31,282 bases of DNA, from IMG/VR virus record IMGVR_UViG_3300025141_000471, positions 1 to 31,282 of that record; one strand, 5' to 3'. The first letter of the stretch is position 1. Each line of letters starts with the position of its first letter. Below are positions 5,623 to 19,434 of this stretch, one piece after another. Both the position numbers and the translations under genes were made by a program. Under the pieces are notes generated by a model. It did no database searches. It was not told the origin of the DNA and saw only the letters and a program-made list of their open reading frames with translations. This DNA is from a virus.

Positions 5623-6183
5623 ATGCCCAACTCCAGCCTAAAAACTACCGATCTAATACCCGATAAGAGAAATGCTCGTAAACGTACCGCACAATCCTCA
5701 CACCTAATCAAGGAATCTCTCAAACGTTACGGCACCGCTCGTTCTGTCGTCATCGACGAGAACAACATGTTAATAGCTGGTCACGGCACCGTTGAAGCTG
5801 CCAAGGCCCTGGGCATTGACAAGGTAAAAGTGATCGATGCCAAGGGCGATGAACTCATCGCTGTTCGTCGCTCCGGCTGGACCGATTCCGAAAAGGTAGG
5901 TGCCAACCTAGCCGATAACCGCTCCTCAGACTTATCTGAATGGGATGCGGAAATGCTAAATGACCTCGCCGCAGATCATGACATAAACCCTTGGTTTTCA
6001 GAAGATGACATCCTCGAACTCCTCGGAGAAACACCAGACTCAGACGATCTAGCAGATGATCAGTCTGATCAGTTAGAGGATAATTTCCAAATCCTAATAT
6101 CATTTGATTCAGAATTAGAGCAGTCCGCTGCGCTAGAAACTCTCATTAAACAAGGATTCTCATGCCGCGCCTTAAATTCCTAA
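5623..6183 (+). CDS. ParB/Srx-fold nuclease-domain protein
   Basis: The 186-residue product begins with the ParB N-terminal pattern: DLIPDKRNARKR, a helix HLIKESLKRYG, TARSVVIDENNMLIAGHGTVEAAKALGIDKVKVI, then ANLADNRSSDLSEWD. The I-x-x-G-H-G motif is the usual catalytic or nucleotide-binding loop, and the N-x-A-D-N-R segment is typical of phage members. An acidic linker leads to a small C-terminal module (FQILISFDSELEQSAALETLIKQGFSCRAL) that I know from phage ParB-domain proteins. In phages such genes often sit just before terminase or beside DNA-modifying enzymes. The stop overlaps the next gene by 22 bases, so the two are probably co-translated. Confidence 0.8.
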   Translation: MPNSSLKTTDLIPDKRNARKRTAQSSHLIKESLKRYGTARSVVIDENNMLIAGHGTVEAAKALGIDKVKVIDAKGDELIAVRRSGWTDSEKVGANLADNRSSDLSEWDAEMLNDLAADHDINPWFSEDDILELLGETPDSDDLADDQSDQLEDNFQILISFDSELEQSAALETLIKQGFSCRALNS

Positions 6184-7298
6184 GGGAATCATCCATCGAA
6201 CGTTCCCCACGGGTTATTCAGCTCGAAGGGCTTTTTGAACTTCCTCCCAGCCCCACAACTACCCTCCAATGGGATGTCAACATCCCTATCGATACCTTCG
6301 ATTGGAATATTGGCGTCATCGTCGGTCCTTCCGGTTGCGGTAAATCCACCCTCGCTCAAGAGCTATTTCCCGACGCTCTTTCCTCCTCCTACCACTGGGA
6401 CAAAAATAGATCCATCGTTGATAACTTCCCCAATAACCTCTCGATTAAAGAGATAACCTCTCTATTATCTTCCGTCGGGTTCTGCTCTCCTCCCTCCTGG
6501 TTACGGCCTTTCCACGTCCTATCCAATGGAGAACAATTCCGCGTCAACATCGCACGTGGCTTAGCTGAACATCCCGATATCCTCTGCTTTGATGAATTTA
6601 CTTCCGTAGTAGATAGACAAATCGCTAAAATAGGCTCAGCCGCTATCGCTAAAGCAGTAAGACGCCGTAATCAACAATTCGTCGCAATCTCTTGCCATTA
6701 CGATATCCTAGAATGGCTTCAACCTGATTGGGTATGGGATCCTTCCACCGCTAAATTTGCGCGAGATTGTCTTCAACGACCCCAAATCGCTCTCTCTGTT
6801 AAACCCGTACACCGCAACCTCTGGAATACTTTCTCCAAATATCATTATCTAAGCCATAATATCCATAAAGGTGCAAAATGTTTCGCCGCCTTCTACAACA
6901 ATCGCCCCGTAGCTTTCACTGCCGTCCTTCACCTCATGCATCCCACTGGCACCATGTGGAAAGAACATCGCACCGTTTGCCTCCCTGATTTTCAAGGCGT
7001 AGGTATCGGTAATAGCCTCTCTAATTACGTTGCCTCCGCTTTCCACGGCTTCCTCGGCAGAAATTACACCTCCGTTACTGCTAACCCCGCAATGGTTGCC
7101 TATCGCGCTAAATCCCCCCTCTGGAAAATGACCCGTAAACCTAAACTTAACCCTAACGCCAGAGCTAGAGGCAAAAAACCTGGACGCAATGGTGCTCAAG
7201 TCCTTCGTAAATCTTTCACAACTGACAGACTTACCGCTTCCTTTAAATATGTCGGCCCTAAAAATTCCGACGCTACTCTCTCTTTAGGATTGAATTAA
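6162..7298 (+). CDS. ABC ATPase fused to a GNAT domain (candidate DNA-modification protein)
   Basis: A 378-residue two-domain protein. Residues 1 to about 205 are an ABC-type ATPase: Walker A GPSGCGKST (55-63), signature-like LSNGEQ (120-125), Walker B ILCFDEF (140-146) and H-loop His 179. There is no transmembrane segment, so it is not a transporter. Residues from about 215 form a GNAT-like domain: RNLWNTFSKYHYLS, AAFYNNRPVAFTAVL, and a pyrophosphate-type loop QGVGIG (278-283), ending with ASFKYVGP. ABC-GNAT fusions next to ParB are known in phages. The Mu DNA-modifying protein Mom is also a GNAT-fold enzyme, so DNA base modification is a reasonable inference but not shown. Start choice is supported by AAGGA seven bases upstream. 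Confidence 0.75.
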   Translation: MPRLKFLRESSIERSPRVIQLEGLFELPPSPTTTLQWDVNIPIDTFDWNIGVIVGPSGCGKSTLAQELFPDALSSSYHWDKNRSIVDNFPNNLSIKEITSLLSSVGFCSPPSWLRPFHVLSNGEQFRVNIARGLAEHPDILCFDEFTSVVDRQIAKIGSAAIAKAVRRRNQQFVAISCHYDILEWLQPDWVWDPSTAKFARDCLQRPQIALSVKPVHRNLWNTFSKYHYLSHNIHKGAKCFAAFYNNRPVAFTAVLHLMHPTGTMWKEHRTVCLPDFQGVGIGNSLSNYVASAFHGFLGRNYTSVTANPAMVAYRAKSPLWKMTRKPKLNPNARARGKKPGRNGAQVLRKSFTTDRLTASFKYVGPKNSDATLSLGLN

Positions 7299-7623: not shown

Positions 7624-7820
7624 TGCCACTTGAATTACGATCTGTCGATGACGGCCATATGTATGAAGTATGCCTAGAGGAAGGAGGAGTTAGGAAATGT
7701 ACGTTTGTCTCAAGTATGCATTTAGTGGATTCTAAAGAAAAGCAACTTAGGGCCGCAATTCGTAGAGAATCCTTTAACGCCTTAATTGAGAATGCCGCTA
7801 GTAATTGTCCTCCTTTATGA
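7623..7820 (+). CDS. Small hypothetical protein between TerS and TerL (65 aa)
   Basis: The start at 7623 overlaps the TerS stop as TGATG; a slightly longer frame from 7614 is possible. The product reads MPLELRSVDDGHMYEVCLEEGG, then a beta-rich CTFVSSMH and a helical KEKQLRAAIRRESFNALIENAAS. No family was recognised. Its TGA overlaps the TerL ATG (ATGA), so it is coupled on both sides. It may be a packaging accessory, but only its position suggests that. Confidence 0.6.
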   Translation: MPLELRSVDDGHMYEVCLEEGGVRKCTFVSSMHLVDSKEKQLRAAIRRESFNALIENAASNCPPL

Positions 7821-9181
7821 GTATCCTAAATCTGTGTAATGCTGGCTCAGTCTTAGAGAAACCTGTTCCTTCTATCGGTGAAAATAATCCCGTCGCCGAA
7901 CAGACATTGCGCGAACAAATTCTAAAAGATTGTTTACCAGCGCAGAGGGAATTTCTCGAAGATGAAGAACATAGAATGCTTTCTTACATTGGAGGATTTG
8001 GCTCGGGGAAGTCCTGGGCCTTGGCAGCAAAACTAATCTTCCTTGGTCTAAGGAACCCTGGAACCACAATGATGGCCTGTGAGCCAACATTTGTCATGGT
8101 TAGACAGGTATTAATGCCAGCTTTGGATAACGCCTTTGATCAGTGGAACATTGAATACAGTTTCAGAGCCAGTCCAACGCCTGAATATACGTTGATGCTA
8201 CCCACCGGGCAGGTCAACATCCTTTGTATGTCTGCAGAGAATTACCAGCGAATTCGTGGTCAGAACATTTCCGCTGCGGTATGGGATGAAGCGGATACAT
8301 CACCAGTAGAAACAGCGCAAAAGGCTAGTGAGATGTTATTGGCAAGGATGCGGGCCGGTGAGTTTAACCAACTTGCTATTGCATCCACACCTGAAGGATA
8401 CAAATTTTGCTTCAGATCCTTCGTTGAAAACGATGGCCCTGATAAGCGGTTGATTCGCGTTCAAACGCAGGATAACCCTTACCTGCCTGAGGATTTTATA
8501 CCGAGCCTTGAAAGGAATTACCCTAAACAATTAATTGCAGCTTATCTCCGAGGAGAATTTACTAACCTCGCAAGTTGTGCGTTATATCCTGAATTTGATC
8601 GGAGTCAGCATTACACTGATGCTGTTGCCACAAATACCGACACTGTTCACATCGGGATTGATCTCAATGTTGGATGTTGTTTAACACAACATATGATCCG
8701 GCGCGGTGATGAGTTTCACTTTTTCAATGAAGCTGTGTTCAGAGATACGCAGCAGATAGCTGTAGGTTTAAAAGAAATGTATCCTGAACATTTCCGCCGT
8801 GGTCAGCTGGTCTTAATTCCTGATGCAGCATCAAGGCAACGGTCTACAGCTGCGGCCCAGGAATCCGATTTGGGGATCTTAAAGCGGGAAGGACATCAGG
8901 TCAAAGTTCAGACCACCAATCCTTTGATCGCTGATAGGATTAATGCCGTCAATAGTTTGATAGAACAAGGACGGCTTCGTGTCAGTAACAAGTGTACGAA
9001 CCTGATCAGAACATTGGAACAGCATTCGTATGATGATTCTGGGCGACCTTTAAAAGGAGGAACTGGTGTCGAAGATCTGAGCCATGCAGGCGACGCGATG
9101 GGATATGCGATTTATAGATATGCAGCAATTAGGAGCTATAAAGTAGGATCGGGCAAAAGCCGTATGGCTTCAATTTATTAA
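7817..9181 (+). CDS. terL: Terminase large subunit
   Basis: The ATP-driven DNA packaging motor and headful or site-specific nuclease. Start taken as ATG 7817, which overlaps the upstream TGA; a TTG at 7805 is less likely. The 454-residue product has Walker A GGFGSGKS (59-66), Walker B AAVWDEAD (153-160, with Asp157 and Glu158), coupling motif AIASTPEG (187-194), and the RNase H-like nuclease acidic residues in IGIDLNVG (Asp282), IPDAASRQRS (Asp336) and HAGDAMGY (Asp426). Length and motif order are normal for the terminase family, and both domains look intact. Confidence 0.95.
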   Translation: MSILNLCNAGSVLEKPVPSIGENNPVAEQTLREQILKDCLPAQREFLEDEEHRMLSYIGGFGSGKSWALAAKLIFLGLRNPGTTMMACEPTFVMVRQVLMPALDNAFDQWNIEYSFRASPTPEYTLMLPTGQVNILCMSAENYQRIRGQNISAAVWDEADTSPVETAQKASEMLLARMRAGEFNQLAIASTPEGYKFCFRSFVENDGPDKRLIRVQTQDNPYLPEDFIPSLERNYPKQLIAAYLRGEFTNLASCALYPEFDRSQHYTDAVATNTDTVHIGIDLNVGCCLTQHMIRRGDEFHFFNEAVFRDTQQIAVGLKEMYPEHFRRGQLVLIPDAASRQRSTAAAQESDLGILKREGHQVKVQTTNPLIADRINAVNSLIEQGRLRVSNKCTNLIRTLEQHSYDDSGRPLKGGTGVEDLSHAGDAMGYAIYRYAAIRSYKVGSGKSRMASIY

Positions 9182-10739: not shown

Positions 10740-12383
10740 ATGACCAGCTCCTATTACGAAGATCAGAATTTGGTCCCATATCCGGTCCCTGGCGTTCTGG
10801 ATCTGCCTGAGTCGCAGTCCTCCTTGGAACCCGAAAACCTGGAATATGACGTTGTAGGAAACGATCCGGCATGGATTTCTGGTCCGGTATTGGAGATGAG
10901 CCGTGACTGGAACGCTATTGAAGCCGTTATAGGCGGTACGCAATATCTGCGTGACCATTATGAAATCCTGTTACCGCAAGAGCCGCGTGAGGATCCAGAG
11001 GCTCATTTGAGGCGGGTGTATCACGCCGTCATGTCTCCGTTTACCGTTCGTATTGCAGAGCAAGCGGCATCCCTCATTCTGCGTAAACAAATCCAGCTAA
11101 CCTCTCGCGAACAAGATGCTGAGGTGGATCCCTATTGGGAGGAATGGAAGGAGAACGTTGACGGCCTGGGGGCAGATTTAGATACCTATGCTCGCAGAGT
11201 CGTTATTAGCTCATTGCTTTTCGGTCATGCCGCTACTTTGGTTGATTATCCCAATGCTGGCGATATTCCGAACTTACAGGCTGAACGTGAACTAAACTTA
11301 CGTCCTTATTTCATCCATATTGATGCCAAACAAATCCTTGGATTTAGGCGGTTAAACGAGATATATCCTAGCCAACCAATCTCTCAAATTCGTATTAACG
11401 AGTTAGTCTCTGAAGCTGAGGGTGCTTTTGGTGATCGCATTCTGCGTCAAATCCGGGTATTAGAGAAAGGGAAGTATTGCATTTACCGTAGACGTTTCAA
11501 TAGCGATAATGGACGTCCATTAGATCGTAATAACACCGAAGAGGATTCAGGTGGGTGGGTAAGGTATGCCGAAGGTACAACCAGCCTGGATACAATCCCC
11601 CTCGCAATTACTTATTCAAACAAAATCGGTGAACTGATCAGCAAGCCACCGCTTCTGCCTATCGCGCATTTGAACATTCTTCATACCCAACGTAGTGCAG
11701 ATTTAAGCCATAGTCTTCACGTCGCCAGTCAGCCGGTATTGGTGCTGAAAGGCTGGACGGACACTGAAAGTACCATTGGTTTATCTGTTAACAAGGCCAT
11801 ATTGATTCCGCCTGATGGCGATGCGTTTTACGTTGAACCTGCTTCATCAGCATTCGAGGCGCAGCAGTCGTTTATTACGCAATTGGAAGAGCAGATGAGT
11901 AGCCTTGGTATTTCTACCTTGTTCTCCCAGAAAATGGGAAGCGAAACCGCAGCGAGTAAGAGATTAAGCCGTACCGATTCTGATTCATTATTGTCAATTG
12001 TTTCTAAGAATCTTGAATCCAGTCTCCAATTAGCGTTCGATTACGCGGCTGAATATGTTGGCATTGAAAGTCCTCTGGTTCAAATTAGTCGTGACTTTGA
12101 TCTGCAGCAGTTAGACGGTAATCAGACCAATTCTTACCTCCAAATGTGGATGAACGGTGCGATATCACAGGAACTTCTCCTGCAAATGCTCAAGGAGGGA
12201 GAGGTTCTGCCAAGTGTTGACATTAATGAAGAGATCGAAAAGGTCGAGAACGAAAAGGATCAAGCGATGGGCCTTTTACCGGAAGATTATTCGCCTGCTG
12301 AAGAAGATCGCAATATGGTTGATTCTGTTGGCGATGTAGAACGTCAACAGATGCGCAGGGAAATCAAGGAAAAATTACCTTAA
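10740..12383 (+). CDS. Portal protein (DUF4055-type)
   Basis: A 547-residue protein in the portal position after TerL. Features I associate with DUF4055-type portals: the N-terminal W-x-x-I-E-A-V-I-G-G-x-x-Y-L segment, LLPQEPREDPEAHLRRVYHAVMS, a Trp-rich YWEEWKENVDGLG followed by YARRVVISSLLFGHAATLVDYP, PYFIHIDAKQILGFR, and the C-terminal helical EQMSSLGISTLFSQ...ETAASKRLSR stem and clip region. Portals form the dodecameric DNA channel at one capsid vertex and dock terminase and connectors. The length is in the usual range. A TAGAAT box lies upstream and the minus-strand NblA-like gene diverges from its start. Confidence 0.85.
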   Translation: MTSSYYEDQNLVPYPVPGVLDLPESQSSLEPENLEYDVVGNDPAWISGPVLEMSRDWNAIEAVIGGTQYLRDHYEILLPQEPREDPEAHLRRVYHAVMSPFTVRIAEQAASLILRKQIQLTSREQDAEVDPYWEEWKENVDGLGADLDTYARRVVISSLLFGHAATLVDYPNAGDIPNLQAERELNLRPYFIHIDAKQILGFRRLNEIYPSQPISQIRINELVSEAEGAFGDRILRQIRVLEKGKYCIYRRRFNSDNGRPLDRNNTEEDSGGWVRYAEGTTSLDTIPLAITYSNKIGELISKPPLLPIAHLNILHTQRSADLSHSLHVASQPVLVLKGWTDTESTIGLSVNKAILIPPDGDAFYVEPASSAFEAQQSFITQLEEQMSSLGISTLFSQKMGSETAASKRLSRTDSDSLLSIVSKNLESSLQLAFDYAAEYVGIESPLVQISRDFDLQQLDGNQTNSYLQMWMNGAISQELLLQMLKEGEVLPSVDINEEIEKVENEKDQAMGLLPEDYSPAEEDRNMVDSVGDVERQQMRREIKEKLP

Positions 12384-12829: not shown

Positions 12830-14032
12830 ATGTCATTCACCGAAGTATTCCACCAGATAACAGGTAATGCCAGAGTTGCTGGAAGGAACATTTCTTATGT
12901 CAGAAAATTCACTAAACGTGGTGGAATTTTGGATGGCCATATGGGAATCCATATTGGTCTTATCTATAACAGCGATATTTATTTGTATCAGAATGATGAG
13001 CCGGTCTCGGGGCTGAACATCGTTCCTGATGCTCAGGCTATTTATGACGCCTTTTTTGCTCAGTCAATGTCTGAGGTTGTTCCCGGCCTGCTTCTAGCCA
13101 ATCCTCAGGCGATTGGTGAGCTGGATTACGACGATACGAAACTAAGAGCAACCGTTATTGGTGCTGGCGGATCCTGGGAGTTTGTTGCAGATCCTTCCGT
13201 TAGCGCCGAAACGGAGATTTCTGAAAGGGTATGGGCGATTCCAGAGGCAGCCTTTGGCGATTTCCGTAGTCTTGCATTACAACGCCTTTCGACTCTGCCC
13301 AGTGGCGTTCAGGCTTCTTCTTATATCGCTTTTGCTGGTTCTGATGATTACATCAACTTTACAGCAGGAAATACAGCTGCTGGTTATTTGGATTGGTCAA
13401 AAGATTGGACTCTTGGCATTACGCTGGTCGGCTATCCGCAATATGCCGATAATAAGTATCAGTGCCTATTCGCCAGTGGAAATAATGTTTTGATGATCCG
13501 TAGAGGTGGCACCAACCAAGCTCTCTATATCGCGTCAAACAACACGGGCTATGCCTCCCAAGGGATTAACACCTGGGCGCCCATCAACGATGGTGACCGC
13601 CTTCAGTTTGAGTACACCACATCAAATAACCATCTGAAGTACTTCAAAGGACAGCCAGGAGCCGCCCCGCAATTGGTTGGTATTTTGACTGTCAATGCAA
13701 CCAACCTGGCGGCTAACGATCCCGGCGATGATTTCGCAATCGGCAGAGGTAATGGTCTGACGAATTATCAGGAGCTACTGCATTGGGATGGTGGTCTAAA
13801 CAATTTCATCGGCATGGATGGCCCAATGGGCACCACTGATCGTCTGAGTTACTTCCAATCCGTTGGCGAAGCTTATGACGAGCAGACATGGTATCCAGAT
13901 CTGACCAGCTGGGCCAAATTAGGAGAAGACACCTATCCGAATGTGGTCGACACCAAAGGAGCCCTGACAGGCGGGGAGCTAATTAACGGTACAGAGGAGG
14001 ACTTTGTTCCGATTGAAACTCCTGCTCCATAA
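12830..14032 (+). CDS. LamG/concanavalin-like phage structural protein (possible head decoration)
   Basis: A 400-residue protein. The first 150 residues (VFHQITGNARVAGRNISYVRKF...) have no domain I know. From about residue 165 a jelly-roll-like module appears: SYIAFAGSDDYINFTAG, DWSKDWTLGITLVGYPQY, CLFASGNNVLMIRRGG, FEYTTSNNHLKYFKG, FAIGRGNG and a LHWDGGLNNFIGMDG strand. That order of beta strands fits a LamG or concanavalin-like lectin fold, which binds sugars or protein surfaces. Lying between portal and head morphogenesis genes, it is a candidate head fibre or decoration protein. The C-terminus is acidic and Pro-rich. The assignment of function is inference. Confidence 0.5.
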   Translation: MSFTEVFHQITGNARVAGRNISYVRKFTKRGGILDGHMGIHIGLIYNSDIYLYQNDEPVSGLNIVPDAQAIYDAFFAQSMSEVVPGLLLANPQAIGELDYDDTKLRATVIGAGGSWEFVADPSVSAETEISERVWAIPEAAFGDFRSLALQRLSTLPSGVQASSYIAFAGSDDYINFTAGNTAAGYLDWSKDWTLGITLVGYPQYADNKYQCLFASGNNVLMIRRGGTNQALYIASNNTGYASQGINTWAPINDGDRLQFEYTTSNNHLKYFKGQPGAAPQLVGILTVNATNLAANDPGDDFAIGRGNGLTNYQELLHWDGGLNNFIGMDGPMGTTDRLSYFQSVGEAYDEQTWYPDLTSWAKLGEDTYPNVVDTKGALTGGELINGTEEDFVPIETPAP

Positions 14033-14257: not shown

Positions 14258-16561
14258 ATGAATGCTAAGCAGCTAGAGATTTTCATTCGCGAAGCATTTC
14301 AGGCGGAACGATGGGCATCTGAAATTATGGAGGAGGTAAGTCCTGCTTTTGTTCAGGCGATGGCAGAAGTTCGGCGAATTGTTGGACAGCTGCCGGAGGA
14401 AAGTTTATTACGAGATATGGAATGGCGTCGACGGTATTTGCCGTTAGTAGAGGATGCAATTCAGCCGTTTAATGATGCCTTAGCTGAAGCCGTAGTTCAG
14501 AAAATGGTGGCAGCGGGGCCTGGATTGGAGGTCGAGGCGTTAAATGGACTTCGTGCGGTTGGGCTAAGTCCTGCGAGGTTAGGCGGTCCATTGTCTGACT
14601 TTACGCGGATGGCATTGGAATCAGAGGTGGTGCAAGGCACCAGTTTGACCAGGCTGTTTGGCTATGGCCCAGACAGGAAACCACAAACCACTCCACCGTT
14701 TACCAAATCCAACATCCGCGTTATCAATCAAAAGGTGGCGACTGGGATTATGAACGGTACGTCAACAGAGGAGATAGCGAATCAAATTGCGCGTGAGGTT
14801 CCAGCACCTGGGCGTCGGCGTCTGCGCATCAACGAGAAGGGCACAGTGGCGCATGAGGTTAATGCCTGGGCTCGAACTATTGCCCGTACCGGTATTCAGG
14901 ATATGAATCGGCAGGTACACGAGCAGGTATGGGACGCAAATGAAGTTACAGGAGATGAATGGGGATATGAATGGGTATCAGCGTTAGATCCTCGTGTTTG
15001 CCCGATCTGCGCACCGATGGACGGGAAAGTAAGAGATAAGCGAAGTGATTTTCCAGAATGGCCTGCACATTTTAATTGTCGCTGTCAGGTTGTATTGATT
15101 AATAAGGACGAACGAGAAGATGTACGTTATGGAACTCAAGTAAAGAAAGAGGAGTTTACTTATAAGGGCACTCCAATTAGCGAGCTAACAGGTTCAGAGC
15201 GAAAAGAAGCATTAAGTTCAGGATTTTATGCGAGCAAAGTAAAAGTCAAAGGCAGACGTTTAAATCGGAAAATTAAAGAGTTTAATGCCGCGCCTGGGCA
15301 GCGTCGCGTGACCTATGGAGACTATTTAGCGGAATCCAATAACGAGACACAAGCTGCGTTTTTTGGTGGCGGGAAAGGAGGAGCAAAACGAGCGGCTGAT
15401 TTTCGTGCATGGATGAATGCTGGAAAAACGCCGATGCAAGCGATGCAGAAAACCATTATCAATATGCCTGGCACAACTGGAGCACTGAAGGACATCAATC
15501 CTCGAACGGTCAGATTCCGTCCGTTAAAGGATCTGAAGGTACCGGCGAAGAGCGTACCGGTGTCAGCACCAAGGCGGGCAACGTCAGTACCAATCCCGGC
15601 CACGAGCGTACCGGTGTCAGCTCCAAGGTCTCCAGAACCAGCAGCTCCAGCGACCGCCATCAAGGTTGCAAAGGAAGCCGAACAGAAAGCCCTTGCAAAG
15701 CTTTCCACTCAAATGGGTACGGCTGAACTTGATGAAGCATTAAAAGCTGTCAATACCAAGGTTGTCGCGAAACCGAGCAGACCACCAGCGACCGATATCA
15801 GAGGTATTAATCCTGTCGAAATCTTCTGGGATAGCAAGGATAGCCTTGGCCGTGGAGCTTTTGGCGAGGCGCGTCTAACACCCGAAGGTGTTGTTAAACG
15901 AGGTTGGCTATCAAAACAGGAATTAAAAATTACGGAGAGATTAAACGATACAGGTGTTACGCCTCGTCTACTTGGTTCGGCCTATGAAGGAGATTGGAAA
16001 CCGAAATTATTCCCTGGAATGAACGTTCGCCGGGGCTACATGTTACTGGAGAAGGCTCCTGGCGAATCGATGCAAAAATTGATTCAATACGCTGGTGGTT
16101 TGACAGATAAGCAGGCAAATAATGCGTTTGAATCTTTAATGAAGGCTCGTAAGAAGGTTCATCTGGCGGGTGTATCGCATCAGGATATGCACCCTGGCAA
16201 CATTATGTATGACCTAAAAAGTGAAAAGCTAACGATTTTAGATTTTGGGTTATCGCGATTAGATTCAAGGGCGGCATTGGTTGAAGCCCTTGGCGTTATG
16301 CAATCTCCTATTGGAGTTGTAGGCGACTTCCAATCTAAAGCCCTGTTTACCTATTTAAATCGAACAGGGGCTGTCAAGAAATCAGAAACATGGAAGCGAT
16401 TTAAGCAGAATAGGAAAACCGTCATTGACAAGCTTCAGGCCGAAGGTGCTGGTGATCTCGTTAACGCCAGTATTAGAGCACCATTGCCGAAAAGTGCAAC
16501 ATCGAACCTTTCGACCAAAAGGGCGTTAGAATTGCTGAAAGAATTGTATGAAGGAATTTAA
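14258..16561 (+). CDS. Minor head protein (Mu gpF/SPP1 gp7-like) fused to a protein-kinase-like domain
   Basis: A 767-residue fusion. The N-terminal 300 residues are a phage head morphogenesis domain: ARTIARTGIQDMNRQVHEQVW, then DPRVCPICAPMDGK with the usual C-x2-C near residues 248-251 and AHFNCRCQV near 270-278. A Pro/Ser/Thr-rich linker with a tandem repeat (about 430-480) follows. From about 525 comes a kinase-like module: LGRGAFGEARL (Gly-rich loop), VVKRG (candidate ATP-binding Lys), KQELKITERL (helix C Glu), YMLLEKAPGE (hinge), SHQDMHPGNIMYD (H-x-D-x-H-x-x-N catalytic loop, near 641) and ILDFGLSR (DFG). The HxDxHPGN form is nearer to UbiB/APH-type kinases than to classical Ser/Thr kinases. 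All key residues are present, so activity is likely; the target is unknown. Confidence 0.8.
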   Translation: MNAKQLEIFIREAFQAERWASEIMEEVSPAFVQAMAEVRRIVGQLPEESLLRDMEWRRRYLPLVEDAIQPFNDALAEAVVQKMVAAGPGLEVEALNGLRAVGLSPARLGGPLSDFTRMALESEVVQGTSLTRLFGYGPDRKPQTTPPFTKSNIRVINQKVATGIMNGTSTEEIANQIAREVPAPGRRRLRINEKGTVAHEVNAWARTIARTGIQDMNRQVHEQVWDANEVTGDEWGYEWVSALDPRVCPICAPMDGKVRDKRSDFPEWPAHFNCRCQVVLINKDEREDVRYGTQVKKEEFTYKGTPISELTGSERKEALSSGFYASKVKVKGRRLNRKIKEFNAAPGQRRVTYGDYLAESNNETQAAFFGGGKGGAKRAADFRAWMNAGKTPMQAMQKTIINMPGTTGALKDINPRTVRFRPLKDLKVPAKSVPVSAPRRATSVPIPATSVPVSAPRSPEPAAPATAIKVAKEAEQKALAKLSTQMGTAELDEALKAVNTKVVAKPSRPPATDIRGINPVEIFWDSKDSLGRGAFGEARLTPEGVVKRGWLSKQELKITERLNDTGVTPRLLGSAYEGDWKPKLFPGMNVRRGYMLLEKAPGESMQKLIQYAGGLTDKQANNAFESLMKARKKVHLAGVSHQDMHPGNIMYDLKSEKLTILDFGLSRLDSRAALVEALGVMQSPIGVVGDFQSKALFTYLNRTGAVKKSETWKRFKQNRKTVIDKLQAEGAGDLVNASIRAPLPKSATSNLSTKRALELLKELYEGI
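15550..15621 (+). repeat. In-frame direct repeat in the head-kinase linker
   Basis: GAGCGTACCGGTGTCAGC occurs at 15550-15567 and 15604-15621, 54 bases apart (18 codons), with one further mismatch in the following seven bases. It encodes repeated SVPVSAPR peptides in the linker between the head domain and the kinase domain. Such slippage repeats can lengthen or shorten the linker. Confidence 0.8.
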
Positions 16562-16713
16562 TGAGCAATTATGTAGAGCTAATGCAACTCAGAAAATTAG
16601 CCTTGATGACATGGGATGAGGAAACAGCGAAGGAATTGATGGATGCAGCGGAAGGATTGATCAAAGAGGGTGTGGTTACCGAGAAAGAATTGCTTGCAGC
16701 GTCATACCTTTAA
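16561..16713 (+). CDS. Small acidic protein (50 aa)
   Basis: Read by eye: its ATG shares one base with the TAA of the head-kinase gene (TAATG), ending at TAA 16711-16713. Product MSNYVELMQLRKLALMTWDE, then a helical ETAKELMDAAEGLIKEG and a helical VTEKELLAAS tail. No family was recognised. Coupling suggests it is made with the head-kinase protein. Confidence 0.6.
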   Translation: MSNYVELMQLRKLALMTWDEETAKELMDAAEGLIKEGVVTEKELLAASYL

Positions 16714-16780
16714 AAATTCAATCTGAGGTGGTTATATTGTTGGTTAGATCCTGTGGGTCTTCAATTCTCTATTTTCCTGT

Positions 16781-17488
16781 ATGTCCGACGCAAACGAGTT
16801 GAGCCCCGTGGGCGACAATACTCAGCAGCCCGTGGCTGTCGCGCCTAATGATCCCCGTGATATTGAACTAGAACGATTGCGAGCGCATAATCAGCAACTC
16901 GCATCGGAACAGTCTAAATATCGTGAGGAAAGGCGTTTAGCTGAAGAACGTGCAACAGCCGCAGAACAACAATTGAAAAGTGTGCCAAAACTGGGTAGCT
17001 CCCAGGCATTGGATGCAGATCAACTGGCGCGGTTGAACAGCTATGACGAACTGCAAAAACGAGTTTCAGGGCTGGAAACAGAACTGAAAACCCGTGATGA
17101 ACAGGTTCGATCAGAACGGATTAAAAGTGCAGCCCTTAGCGCCTTCAATCAAGGCGGCGCAATCAATGGAATGCACCTTTATGAAGCTAGGAAGAATGAT
17201 TTAGTCCTTCGCGATGATGGATCGGTTGTGGGCCTCGATGGGGGCGTCGAGCGGCCACTCGATCAGTTTGTCGAAGGGTTAAAAGCTCCAGGCAGTGCCT
17301 GGGCGTATCAATTCCAAGCATCCGGCGCTAGAGGAAGTGGAGCAGTTGGTTCACAACCCACGTCAACAGATGGGATTCCGAATCCCTATTTGACGGGGAA
17401 TTTTGCCCAGGCCGTAGCTCTTGAATCAGGTACGCCAGAGGAACAAGCCCTGGCGGCCAGATTTAAGGCTGAGGCAGGCAAGAAATAG
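16781..17488 (+). CDS. Head scaffold protein
   Basis: A 235-residue, Glu/Gln/Ala-rich helical protein directly before the major capsid gene. An acidic disordered N-terminus is followed by a long coiled coil (IELERLRAHNQQLASEQ..., YREERRLAEERATAAEQQLK) and a second one (YDELQKRVSGLETELKTRDEQVRSERIKSAALSAF). The C-terminal part is Gly/Ser/Pro-rich, then a short helix. Scaffold proteins guide capsid assembly and leave or are digested before packaging. Composition and position make the call; no catalytic motif for a protease was seen. Confidence 0.75.
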   Translation: MSDANELSPVGDNTQQPVAVAPNDPRDIELERLRAHNQQLASEQSKYREERRLAEERATAAEQQLKSVPKLGSSQALDADQLARLNSYDELQKRVSGLETELKTRDEQVRSERIKSAALSAFNQGGAINGMHLYEARKNDLVLRDDGSVVGLDGGVERPLDQFVEGLKAPGSAWAYQFQASGARGSGAVGSQPTSTDGIPNPYLTGNFAQAVALESGTPEEQALAARFKAEAGKK

Positions 17489-17527: not shown

Positions 17528-18637
17528 ATGGGCGTCTTTCAAGGCAACGCCGGAACCTCTCCGAACCAATCGGTTTTTACCAGTGACATTGGGTCGCTGA
17601 CAAGGCTGGCAACTTCTGCCCCGTTTCAGAAATATCTGATCGAGGAAATTTTCCAGAAGTCTGCTTTCGTGCAATCAGGTGTCCTTTCGCCTGAAAGCCG
17701 TTTGAGCAACACGATCGGAACACGTATTGAAGTTCCTTTCTTTGATCCTCTGGATTACACCGAGGAAACGGTGGCTAGCTCCAACGATTGGGGCACAAAT
17801 GGCGCTGGTTTCTATACAACCCAGAAAACCACTGCTAGTACGCAGTACGCCACCATTACTAACCGTGGCGCGGCATTCGCCATGGACGATCTCTCACAGG
17901 TGCAAACCGGTGAGGATGCGTTGAATGCAATCCGTAGCCAATTGTCTACGGACATGGCGCGGAAAATGGAGCAGAAGCTCCTATTCATGCTCCAAGGGAT
18001 CCTTGGTCCTGCGGGTCCATTGGCTGCTACTAACAGCCTCGATGTATCCGGCACTGATGCCGGTGCATTGACTGAAGCGAATTACCTGACTGCACAGAAC
18101 GTTGTTGCGGCCAAGTATCTGCTTTCAGAGCGGGCCAATGATCTGAACGCCATTGCGATGCACCCTCTGTGTGCTGCGTATTTGGAGCAGATCGGGATGC
18201 TGACTTTCTCCACTGATTCTCTCGTTTCGGGTGGCAACATCCAATGGGGCGGCGGTGGCGTTGGTGTTACCAACACCCAGATTGGCTGGTTTGCTGGCCT
18301 TCGTGTTGTCGTTGACTCTCAGATGCCTGTTCGTGGCACTGCCGGTCAGGCGCAACAATTCGTTTCGTATCTGTTTAATGACGGGGCTGTAAAGACCGGT
18401 CAACAGTTCGCAATGAAGATCGAAAGCGAGCGCAACATCCTGAGTTTGCAGGACATCATGGCTGTTACTTATAACAACGTGATGCACATTCCAGGCATCT
18501 CCTGGGCTGGCTCTTTTGATGGTCCTACCAATGCTCAATTGGCAGAACCTACAAACTGGAGCCTTGCGTATTCAGTTCCTCAGCTTTGCGGTGTTGTTGA
18601 ATTGGTGACCAACTCACCATTCGGCGGTACAGTTTAA
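17528..18637 (+). CDS. Major capsid protein (HK97-fold coat protein)
   Basis: A 369-residue protein immediately after scaffold and followed by a strong terminator, as expected for the most expressed gene. The sequence has the coat-protein family layout: early QKYLIEEIFQKSAFVQSG, an E-loop-like region (TRIEVPFFDPLDYTEETVASSNDWG), RGAAFAMDDLSQVQTGEDALNAI, a spine helix (DMARKMEQKLLFMLQGIL), the peripheral and axial domain strands (IGWFAGLRVVVDSQMPV), and SLQDIMAVTYNNVMHIPGISW. This fits HK97-fold coat proteins of siphoviruses and podoviruses. It assembles the icosahedral head. No protease or covalent cross-link site can be claimed. Confidence 0.8.
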   Translation: MGVFQGNAGTSPNQSVFTSDIGSLTRLATSAPFQKYLIEEIFQKSAFVQSGVLSPESRLSNTIGTRIEVPFFDPLDYTEETVASSNDWGTNGAGFYTTQKTTASTQYATITNRGAAFAMDDLSQVQTGEDALNAIRSQLSTDMARKMEQKLLFMLQGILGPAGPLAATNSLDVSGTDAGALTEANYLTAQNVVAAKYLLSERANDLNAIAMHPLCAAYLEQIGMLTFSTDSLVSGGNIQWGGGGVGVTNTQIGWFAGLRVVVDSQMPVRGTAGQAQQFVSYLFNDGAVKTGQQFAMKIESERNILSLQDIMAVTYNNVMHIPGISWAGSFDGPTNAQLAEPTNWSLAYSVPQLCGVVELVTNSPFGGTV

Positions 18638-18727: not shown

Positions 18728-18865
18728 ATGGTCGGCCTTGTGCGAATGGACTTCTACAAAAACGGAGTTCTAAAAGTCGTTCACCTCCCCACAGATGAGG
18801 CGAAACGGGAGCACAAACGTCGATTGGAAGAAGGCTGGGTTCTTGCGTTCAGCGTTCCTGTATGA
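18728..18865 (+). CDS. Small hypothetical protein (45 aa)
   Basis: Starts MVGLVRMDFYKNGVLKVV (an internal Met at 18746 is an alternative start) and ends at a TGA that overlaps the next ATG as ATGA (18862-18865). The middle, LPTDEAKREHKRRLEEGW, is a basic helix followed by VLAFSVP. No family was recognised. The coupling and the promoter box upstream make it a likely first gene of the connector unit. Confidence 0.6.
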   Translation: MVGLVRMDFYKNGVLKVVHLPTDEAKREHKRRLEEGWVLAFSVPV

Positions 18866-19434
18866 CCTTCAATTCTGTCTTGGGCGGCAGTGACGCCACC
18901 TCGTATATTTCCGTTGCAACAGCAGATGCAATATGGGCTAATACGTTGAATGATGTTGCTTGGTCGGCATTAACCGAAACGGAGAAACAGCAATCCTTGA
19001 TGGCTTCTACCAATGCGTTAGAAGCGTTGCGTTTTTCTGGTGTGCGTTGTTCGCCATCGACTGATGATGCGAACCTGCAACAAGCTCTGCAATGGCCTCG
19101 CAATGGCTACATGTGCAAAGGGATCCAGGCGACCTGTGGATTTATTCCACGGCAGGTAGAGGAGGCATGTGCGTATCTGGCGCTGAACCTCTATAACGAT
19201 CCAAATGCGATCATCCCTGGGGTGCCGACACCGACTCCACAACGTGGCGCCGTACAGAAGCAGAAATTAGGCGATTTGGAGCAGACGTATTTTGCGCCGT
19301 CTGACGTAGGGACGAAGATCGGGGTTAGTGCTCCTATCGTGTTACAAAAGTTCCCTTGGCTGGTGGATGTCCTGTCGTGTTGGCTGGACGGCAACTACGG
19401 TCAAAGTGGGATTATCAATCGCGTGAGGTCTTGA
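18862..19434 (+). CDS. Head-tail connector/adaptor (DnaT-like family)
   Basis: A 190-residue protein with the pattern of phage DnaT-like adaptors: SYISVATADAIWANT, then ALTETEKQQSLMASTNALEALRFSG, QALQWPRNGYMCKG, and IPRQVEEACAYLALNLYND. In known siphovirus maps this family is placed after the capsid gene and completes the portal vertex interface, despite the DnaT name. The C-terminal PTPTPQRGAVQKQKLGDLEQTYF segment is the usual flexible extension. The overlap with the upstream gene (ATGA) and the downstream small gene (TGATG) ties it into the connector operon. Confidence 0.75.
   Translation: MTFNSVLGGSDATSYISVATADAIWANTLNDVAWSALTETEKQQSLMASTNALEALRFSGVRCSPSTDDANLQQALQWPRNGYMCKGIQATCGFIPRQVEEACAYLALNLYNDPNAIIPGVPTPTPQRGAVQKQKLGDLEQTYFAPSDVGTKIGVSAPIVLQKFPWLVDVLSCWLDGNYGQSGIINRVRS

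What the first reader, a model, noticed from the sequence alone, without database searches (positions are those of the whole stretch)
14258..16561. Minor head protein fused to an intact kinase-like domain
The Mu gpF/SPP1 gp7-type head domain with its C-x2-C and N-C-R-C cluster is joined by a repeat-bearing linker to a complete kinase-like module: Gly loop, Lys, helix C Glu, H-x-D-x-H-P-G-N catalytic loop and DFG. Seen directly in one uninterrupted frame. Because minor head proteins can be injected with the DNA (established for some phages), the kinase could act on host proteins at the very start of infection, or phosphorylate capsid parts. The target and timing are inference.
Basis: partly seen in the sequence, partly recalled or inferred. 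Interest (0 to 1): 0.78.

Follow-up and report, generated by a model that had tools for sequence, protein, structure and literature searches.

The report
Phage head protein carrying a kinase cassette
A phage head protein carries an intact kinase domain on a floppy tether, followed by the gene for a tiny partner protein; kinase and partner recur together in dozens of phage contigs and look built to be packed into the virus particle and released into the host cell at infection, although no activity has been shown.

Summary
One open frame (14258-16561, 767 aa) joins a MuF (Mu gpF/SPP1 gp7) head domain to a complete kinase domain (model pLDDT 92.9, pTM 0.91). Kinase, linker and a 50-aa gene overlapping the kinase stop (16561-16713) form one cassette. 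Five close relatives carry the same head protein without it; in two, homology resumes at the base after the small gene's stop. An unrelated MuF backbone in another contig carries the same cassette (kinase 83%, small protein 66%, MuF about 26% identical). The kinase recurs in dozens of viral contigs, 15 of them MuF fusions. Seven catalytic positions are invariant in 36 of 36. The small partner is encoded beside it in 46 of 47 loci, in seven on the opposite strand with overlapping stops. T4-like cyanophages carry the same pair unfused, and in S-CREM2 both proteins were reported from virions by mass spectrometry. Best reading: a virion-delivered kinase effector with a dedicated regulator, tethered to the head. 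Kinase activity, substrate and injection are not shown. MuF effector fusions and cyanophage virion kinases are known; their union and the conserved partner appear new.

The parts
14258..16561 (+). MuF-kinase fusion gene, 767 aa
   Evidence: single open frame; Pfam Phage_Mu_F + Pkinase
14723..15091 (+). MuF (Mu gpF / SPP1 gp7-like) head domain, aa 156-278, with CPIC and NCRC
   Evidence: Pfam E 1.3e-12, PHROG 241/595/115
15467..15796 (+). Pro/Ala-rich linker region, aa about 404-513, mostly predicted disordered, with a 33-nt direct repeat at 15542-15574 and 15596-15628
   Evidence: repeat; low pLDDT in the full-length model
15812..16558 (+). kinase domain, aa 519-767, with K547, E555, H641, D643, N648, D662, G664 and C-terminal LYEGI
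   Evidence: model pLDDT 92.9, pTM 0.91; invariance 36/36; fold matches
16561..16713 (+). small partner gene, 50 aa, start overlapping the kinase stop (TAATG)
   Evidence: conserved in L008 33/50 with mostly third-position change; homologous to the protein after cyanophage kinases; adjacent in 46 of 47 loci
15539..16713 (+). inserted cassette (most of the linker + kinase + partner) absent from relatives L002 and L003; homology to L004 resumes at about 16728
   Evidence: blastn: homology to L002/L003 ends at 15538 and resumes at 16714
15677..16700 (+). DNA shared (71%) with the otherwise different contig of L008
   Evidence: blastn
10740..12383 (+). portal protein (context)
   Evidence: phrog_145 E 1e-86
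16781..17488 (+). probable scaffold (context)
   Evidence: weak Phage_scaffold, E 1.3e-4, below cut-off
17528..18637 (+). major head protein (context)
   Evidence: phrog_247 E 1e-43

Best explanation
It is a mobile two-gene effector cassette attached to a structural head protein. The MuF domain joins the head near the portal during assembly (established for SPP1 gp7; inferred here). The long, mostly disordered linker tethers an intact kinase inside the head. On infection the kinase reaches the host cell with the DNA and phosphorylates host molecules, most likely proteins, before phage genes are expressed (inferred). The 50-aa partner binds the kinase and restrains or escorts it in the producing cell and perhaps in the virion (inferred from near-obligate linkage, correlated divergence, its occurrence as a separate reverse-strand gene, and its reported presence in S-CREM2 virions). 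Shown: the fusion, intact catalytic motifs and predicted fold, purifying selection, cassette insertion and sharing between unrelated MuF backbones, and near-universal kinase-partner linkage. Not shown: catalytic activity, partner binding, packaging or injection of this protein, and the substrate.
For: Head-gene context: portal upstream, scaffold-like and capsid genes downstream. Kinase model pLDDT 92.9, pTM 0.91; catalytic residues 36/36; nearest viral models are cyanophage S-H34 kinase (TM 0.78) and F5B400 (TM 0.79). Differences between window and L008 fall at codon positions 1/2/3 as 20/11/54% in the kinase and 28/14/68% in the partner, so both are read as proteins and constrained. Empty sites in L002-L005 and exact return of homology after the partner stop in L002/L003. 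Cassette shared with L008 on a different MuF backbone. Partner homology between cyanophages and window: 24.2 bits against 11.6 for the best of 10,000 shuffles. Partner next to the kinase in 46 of 47 loci, seven on the opposite strand with overlapping stops. Kinase-partner distance correlation r 0.87, 0 of 5000 permutations; within MuF fusions 0.85 against 0.51 for partner-MuF. S-CREM2 ORF14 (kinase, 21 peptides) and ORF13 (partner, 1 peptide) in the virion proteome (PMC10665884; homology). Disordered tether. One member also carries a zeta toxin between MuF and kinase (L029).
Against: No activity or substrate is known. The catalytic loop has His645 where protein kinases usually have Lys, and there is no canonical APE motif, so the substrate could be a small molecule. 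The S-CREM2 authors say their virion proteins might be carry-over in CsCl purification, and the partner rests on one peptide. The window is a 31-kb metagenomic fragment with no known host. Related contigs are partly near-duplicates, so counts are not independent events, and the distance permutations do not correct for shared ancestry.
Confidence: 0.55

Rival explanations
1. It is a MuF polymorphic toxin in the strict sense: the kinase is a growth-inhibiting toxin used against competitors or superinfected cells, and the small ORF is its immunity protein.
For: Same anatomy: MuF, C-terminal extension, small ORF. Jamet et al. report a small ORF after 89.4% of MuF toxin genes against 25.5% of short MuF genes. 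MuF toxins Bxa and Apk2 have inhibitor proteins encoded next door. A zeta toxin co-occurs in L029. The partner can be a separate reverse-strand unit.
Against: That family is described as confined to temperate phages. No tyrosine integrase was found in the window, L008 or eight related contigs, but all are fragments, and the same pair occurs in T4-like cyanophages. The partner family is uniform across all members, whereas immunity proteins are usually diverse. The partner was reported in virions.
Confidence: 0.25
2. The kinase acts on phage parts: it phosphorylates portal, scaffold or capsid during assembly, and the partner is an assembly regulator.
For: It sits in the head operon, fused to a head protein, and is presumably made late with its neighbours.
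Against: Close relatives with 70-89% identical MuF proteins lack it, and the cassette serves unrelated backbones and T4-like phages, so a conserved capsid substrate is unlikely.
Confidence: 0.1
3. It is a small-molecule kinase of the APH/choline-kinase type acting on a metabolite or antibiotic.
For: APH and ABC1 profiles also match (E 1e-4 and 5e-5), the loop is HxDxH, and homologues are annotated APH-like.
Against: Pkinase scores far better (E 3e-12; 38 of 40 members), and profile and fold searches of the PDB rank protein kinases first; PDB composition biases this.
Confidence: 0.1

Closest known systems
MuF polymorphic toxins (Jamet 2017; Apk2; Bxa)
   Same: MuF domain, variable C-terminal enzyme, small adjacent gene, exchange of the C-terminal module
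   Different: C-terminus is a protein-kinase-like domain; the main text of Jamet 2017 does not contain the word kinase; uniform partner family; the pair also occurs outside MuF fusions in T4-like phages
Virion-associated kinases of T4-like cyanophages (S-CREM2 ORF14, S-CRM01, S-H34)
   Same: homologous kinase (25-29% identity, TM 0.78-0.79), similar LYEG/LYDG/LWEG motif after the C-lobe in most, same small gene next to it
   Different: there the kinase is the C-terminal part of a separate 650-820 aa protein with an unrelated N-terminus; here it is fused to MuF
Kinase domains of polyvalent proteins (Iyer 2017)
   Same: kinase domain in proteins thought to be delivered with phage DNA
   Different: those are described as lacking the whole C-lobe, with an insert between His and Asp and a conserved Gln; none of these applies here
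MuF-zeta toxin fusions (Iyer 2017)
   Same: MuF with an effector kinase; L029 carries both
   Different: zeta toxin is a P-loop sugar kinase, unrelated in fold
T7 gp0.7 kinase
   Same: phage kinase acting on host proteins (from literature)
   Different: made after infection, not a head fusion

Membership tests
MuF head proteins | Phage_Mu_F domain in the portal-capsid gene block | tested here: met
MuF polymorphic toxins | C-terminal extension of at least 100 aa after MuF, exchangeable | tested here: met
   kinase cassette present or absent on the same backbone, shared with another
MuF polymorphic toxins | small ORF under 150 aa directly downstream | tested here: met
   16561-16713
MuF polymorphic toxins | temperate phage or prophage | tested here: inconclusive
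   no tyrosine integrase found, but the records are fragments
MuF polymorphic toxins | toxic C-terminus neutralised by the adjacent protein | not testable with these tools
   needs an expression assay
Protein kinase superfamily | N-lobe with Gly loop, Lys, helix C Glu; HxD, Asn, DFG | tested here: met
Protein kinase superfamily | canonical HRDxK loop Lys and APE motif | tested here: not met
   HQDMH and no APE in the sequence; an invariant Glu676 twelve residues after the DFG Gly might replace APE (inference)
T4-like cyanophage virion kinases | homologous kinase plus the small partner gene | tested here: met
T4-like cyanophage virion kinases | present in the virion | not testable with these tools
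   S-CREM2 data read in PMC10665884; nothing for this phage
Iyer polyvalent-protein kinases | loss of the C-terminal subdomain; insert between catalytic His and Asp; conserved Gln in last N-lobe strand | tested here: not met
   C-lobe helices predicted at high confidence, HxD without insert, no Gln in YMLLEKAPG; definition

The most novel reading that the evidence does not exclude
Kinase and small partner form a previously undescribed, widespread phage effector-regulator pair carried in virions. It has been grafted onto MuF and other virion proteins and phosphorylates host proteins at the moment of infection, held inactive by the partner until then.
Probability: 0.35. Interest if true: 0.82.

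Novelty: new variant of a known kind. Interest (0 to 1): 0.64.

Why it matters
Virion-packed kinases are rarely reported in phages, and how they get into the head or are kept quiet is unknown. This module suggests a delivery route (a tether on a head protein) and names a candidate regulator, and it makes both testable with two small genes. It also links the MuF effector literature with scattered reports of kinases in cyanophage virions.

Tried and rejected
Chance or chimeric assembly: rejected, as the fusion recurs in 14 other loci. SHOCT or other Pfam identity for the partner: no credible match; phrog_3582 (unknown function) matches weakly (8e-4). Polyvalent-protein kinase subgroup: features not met. 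Cellular origin: a genome-contig scan with two sequences found nothing, and one with 36 sequences found only four weak kinase matches. Apparent absence of the partner in seven MuF-kinase loci was a search artefact: it lies on the other strand. UbiB, APH and RIO kinases are not among the rows shown by the PDB fold searches, which says nothing against them. A kinase-partner read-through alignment meant for a pseudo-complex misaligned and was not folded. tblastn of the window partner alone against isolated phages found nothing. The full-length model has pTM 0.38: the arrangement of the domains is not predicted. Literature searches for a MuF-protein kinase fusion found none in the open-access library; most subscription papers and preprints were not searchable.

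Full report
Observation. Window 14258-16561 encodes 767 aa in one frame. Pfam places Phage_Mu_F at 156-278 and Pkinase at 593-668, both above curated cut-offs. The gene lies in a standard head block: terminase 7805-9181, portal 10740-12383, scaffold-like 16781-17488, capsid 17528-18637, adaptor 18862-19434. Portal and capsid are close, among isolated phages, to cyanophage S-2L (36-37%), so a cyanobacterial host is plausible but not shown. The window is a 31,282-base viral metagenome record.

The kinase is a cassette. Five relatives (L002-L006) carry a 70-89% identical MuF protein that stops near aa 430 to 440. Compared with L002 and L003, window homology stops at 15538 and resumes at 16714, the base after the stop of a 50-codon gene. 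That gene starts inside the kinase stop (TAATG, 16561). A second contig (L008) has a MuF protein about 26% identical in its head part but a kinase 83% identical, with the small gene following at 33/50 identity. Nucleotide similarity between the two contigs covers 15677-16700, the cassette without its repeat-bearing linker half. Differences fall mainly on third codon positions in both genes.

The pair is widespread. Isolated T4-like cyanophages S-CREM2, S-B68, MA01, S-H34, S-N03 and S-CRM01 carry a homologous kinase in the C-terminal part of 650-820 aa proteins, each followed by a 74-79 aa protein. A profile of those six small proteins ranks the window's small ORF first of 11,909 sequences (24.2 bits) and L008's second, against 11.6 bits for the best shuffle. 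A scan of viral contigs with the kinase alignment gave 64 loci. In the 54 examined, 47 have the partner: 46 directly beside the kinase and one (L026) one gene later, after a second kinase of the same family. Of the seven without, one runs off its contig and six are weak, partial kinase matches. In seven MuF-kinase loci the partner is on the opposite strand, stop codons overlapping; these were found with a profile not trained on them (E 5e-12 to 4e-17). In two loci (L041, L059) an additional kinase gene of the family has its own additional partner; a third extra copy (L068) follows a non-kinase gene. Kinase and partner distances correlate (r 0.87 over 35 pairs, 0 of 5000 permutations; 0.85 among MuF fusions against 0.51 for partner-MuF).

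Architecture. 15 loci including the window fuse the kinase to MuF; Pfam confirms MuF in 14 of 40 aligned members and a zeta toxin in one (L029, between MuF and kinase), and PHROG a portal in one. Another large group has Cys-motif N-termini (CQRPDGSVYGTQGQCRKG or CxxGKxCGAxCI) of unknown role; L036 has two kinase domains.

Kinase. The model (249 aa, 36 sequences) has pLDDT 92.9 and pTM 0.91. Best viral matches are cyanophage kinases; best re-aligned PDB matches are eukaryotic-type kinases such as Pim1 (Z 13.6, rmsd 3.5 over 185 residues), a list limited to chains Foldseek ranked highest. K547, E555, H641, D643, N648, D662 and G664 are invariant in 36 of 36. The loop lacks the usual Lys, and no canonical APE is present, so substrate class is open. 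In the full-length model the kinase folds and residues 404-475 and 489-513 have pLDDT under 50, consistent with a flexible tether; domain arrangement is unresolved (pTM 0.38).

Mechanism. PMC10665884 lists S-CREM2 ORF14 (kinase, 21 unique peptides) and ORF13 (the partner homologue, 1 peptide) in the virion proteome, and warns of possible carry-over. MuF toxins Bxa and Apk2 have adjacent proteins that block their enzymes. I therefore favour a virion-delivered kinase effector with a dedicated partner. The partner's uniformity, its occurrence with T4-like kinases and its reported presence in virions make it look more like a regulator or escort than a typical diverse immunity protein, but this is inference. 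Activity, binding, packaging and injection were not tested.

Novelty. MuF effector fusions and cyanophage virion kinases are each known. Their union in MuF-kinase fusions, the cassette's sharing between backbones, and the conserved partner family were not found in the papers searched, a library without preprints or most subscription journals.

Noticed in passing
window 6162-7298: Gene joining an ABC-ATPase-like half to a GNAT acetyltransferase-like half; matches phrog_11143 (unknown function) at E 6e-106.
   Followed up: no
window 12830-14032; L008 5689-6897: A conserved gene without Pfam match lies between portal and MuF in the window and L003/L004/L006 but after the MuF-kinase gene in L008.
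   Followed up: no
L029 2304-5156: One protein carries MuF, a zeta toxin and the kinase in a row.
   Followed up: partly
L036 1326-5705; L059 4599-8534; L026 4437-7618; L041 683-5940: Double or tandem kinases of this family, with partner genes after some of them.
   Followed up: partly
L068 3370-3567: An extra partner-like gene follows a non-kinase protein with the CQRPDGTTYGTAGTCRKG motif.
   Followed up: no
L010 4080-6711 (S-CREM2): Kinase and partner genes are followed by a gene annotated as a Cas9-like nuclease, also listed in the virion proteome.
   Followed up: no
window 16505-16558 and 16675-16710: Kinase C-tail (NLSTKRALELLKELYEGI) and partner C-tail (VTEKELLAASYL) look alike; MAFFT aligned them. 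Could be mimicry or chance.
   Followed up: no
window 5623-6183: ParB-like / methyltransferase-associated domain protein (phrog_620 E 2e-27) upstream of the terminase.
   Followed up: no
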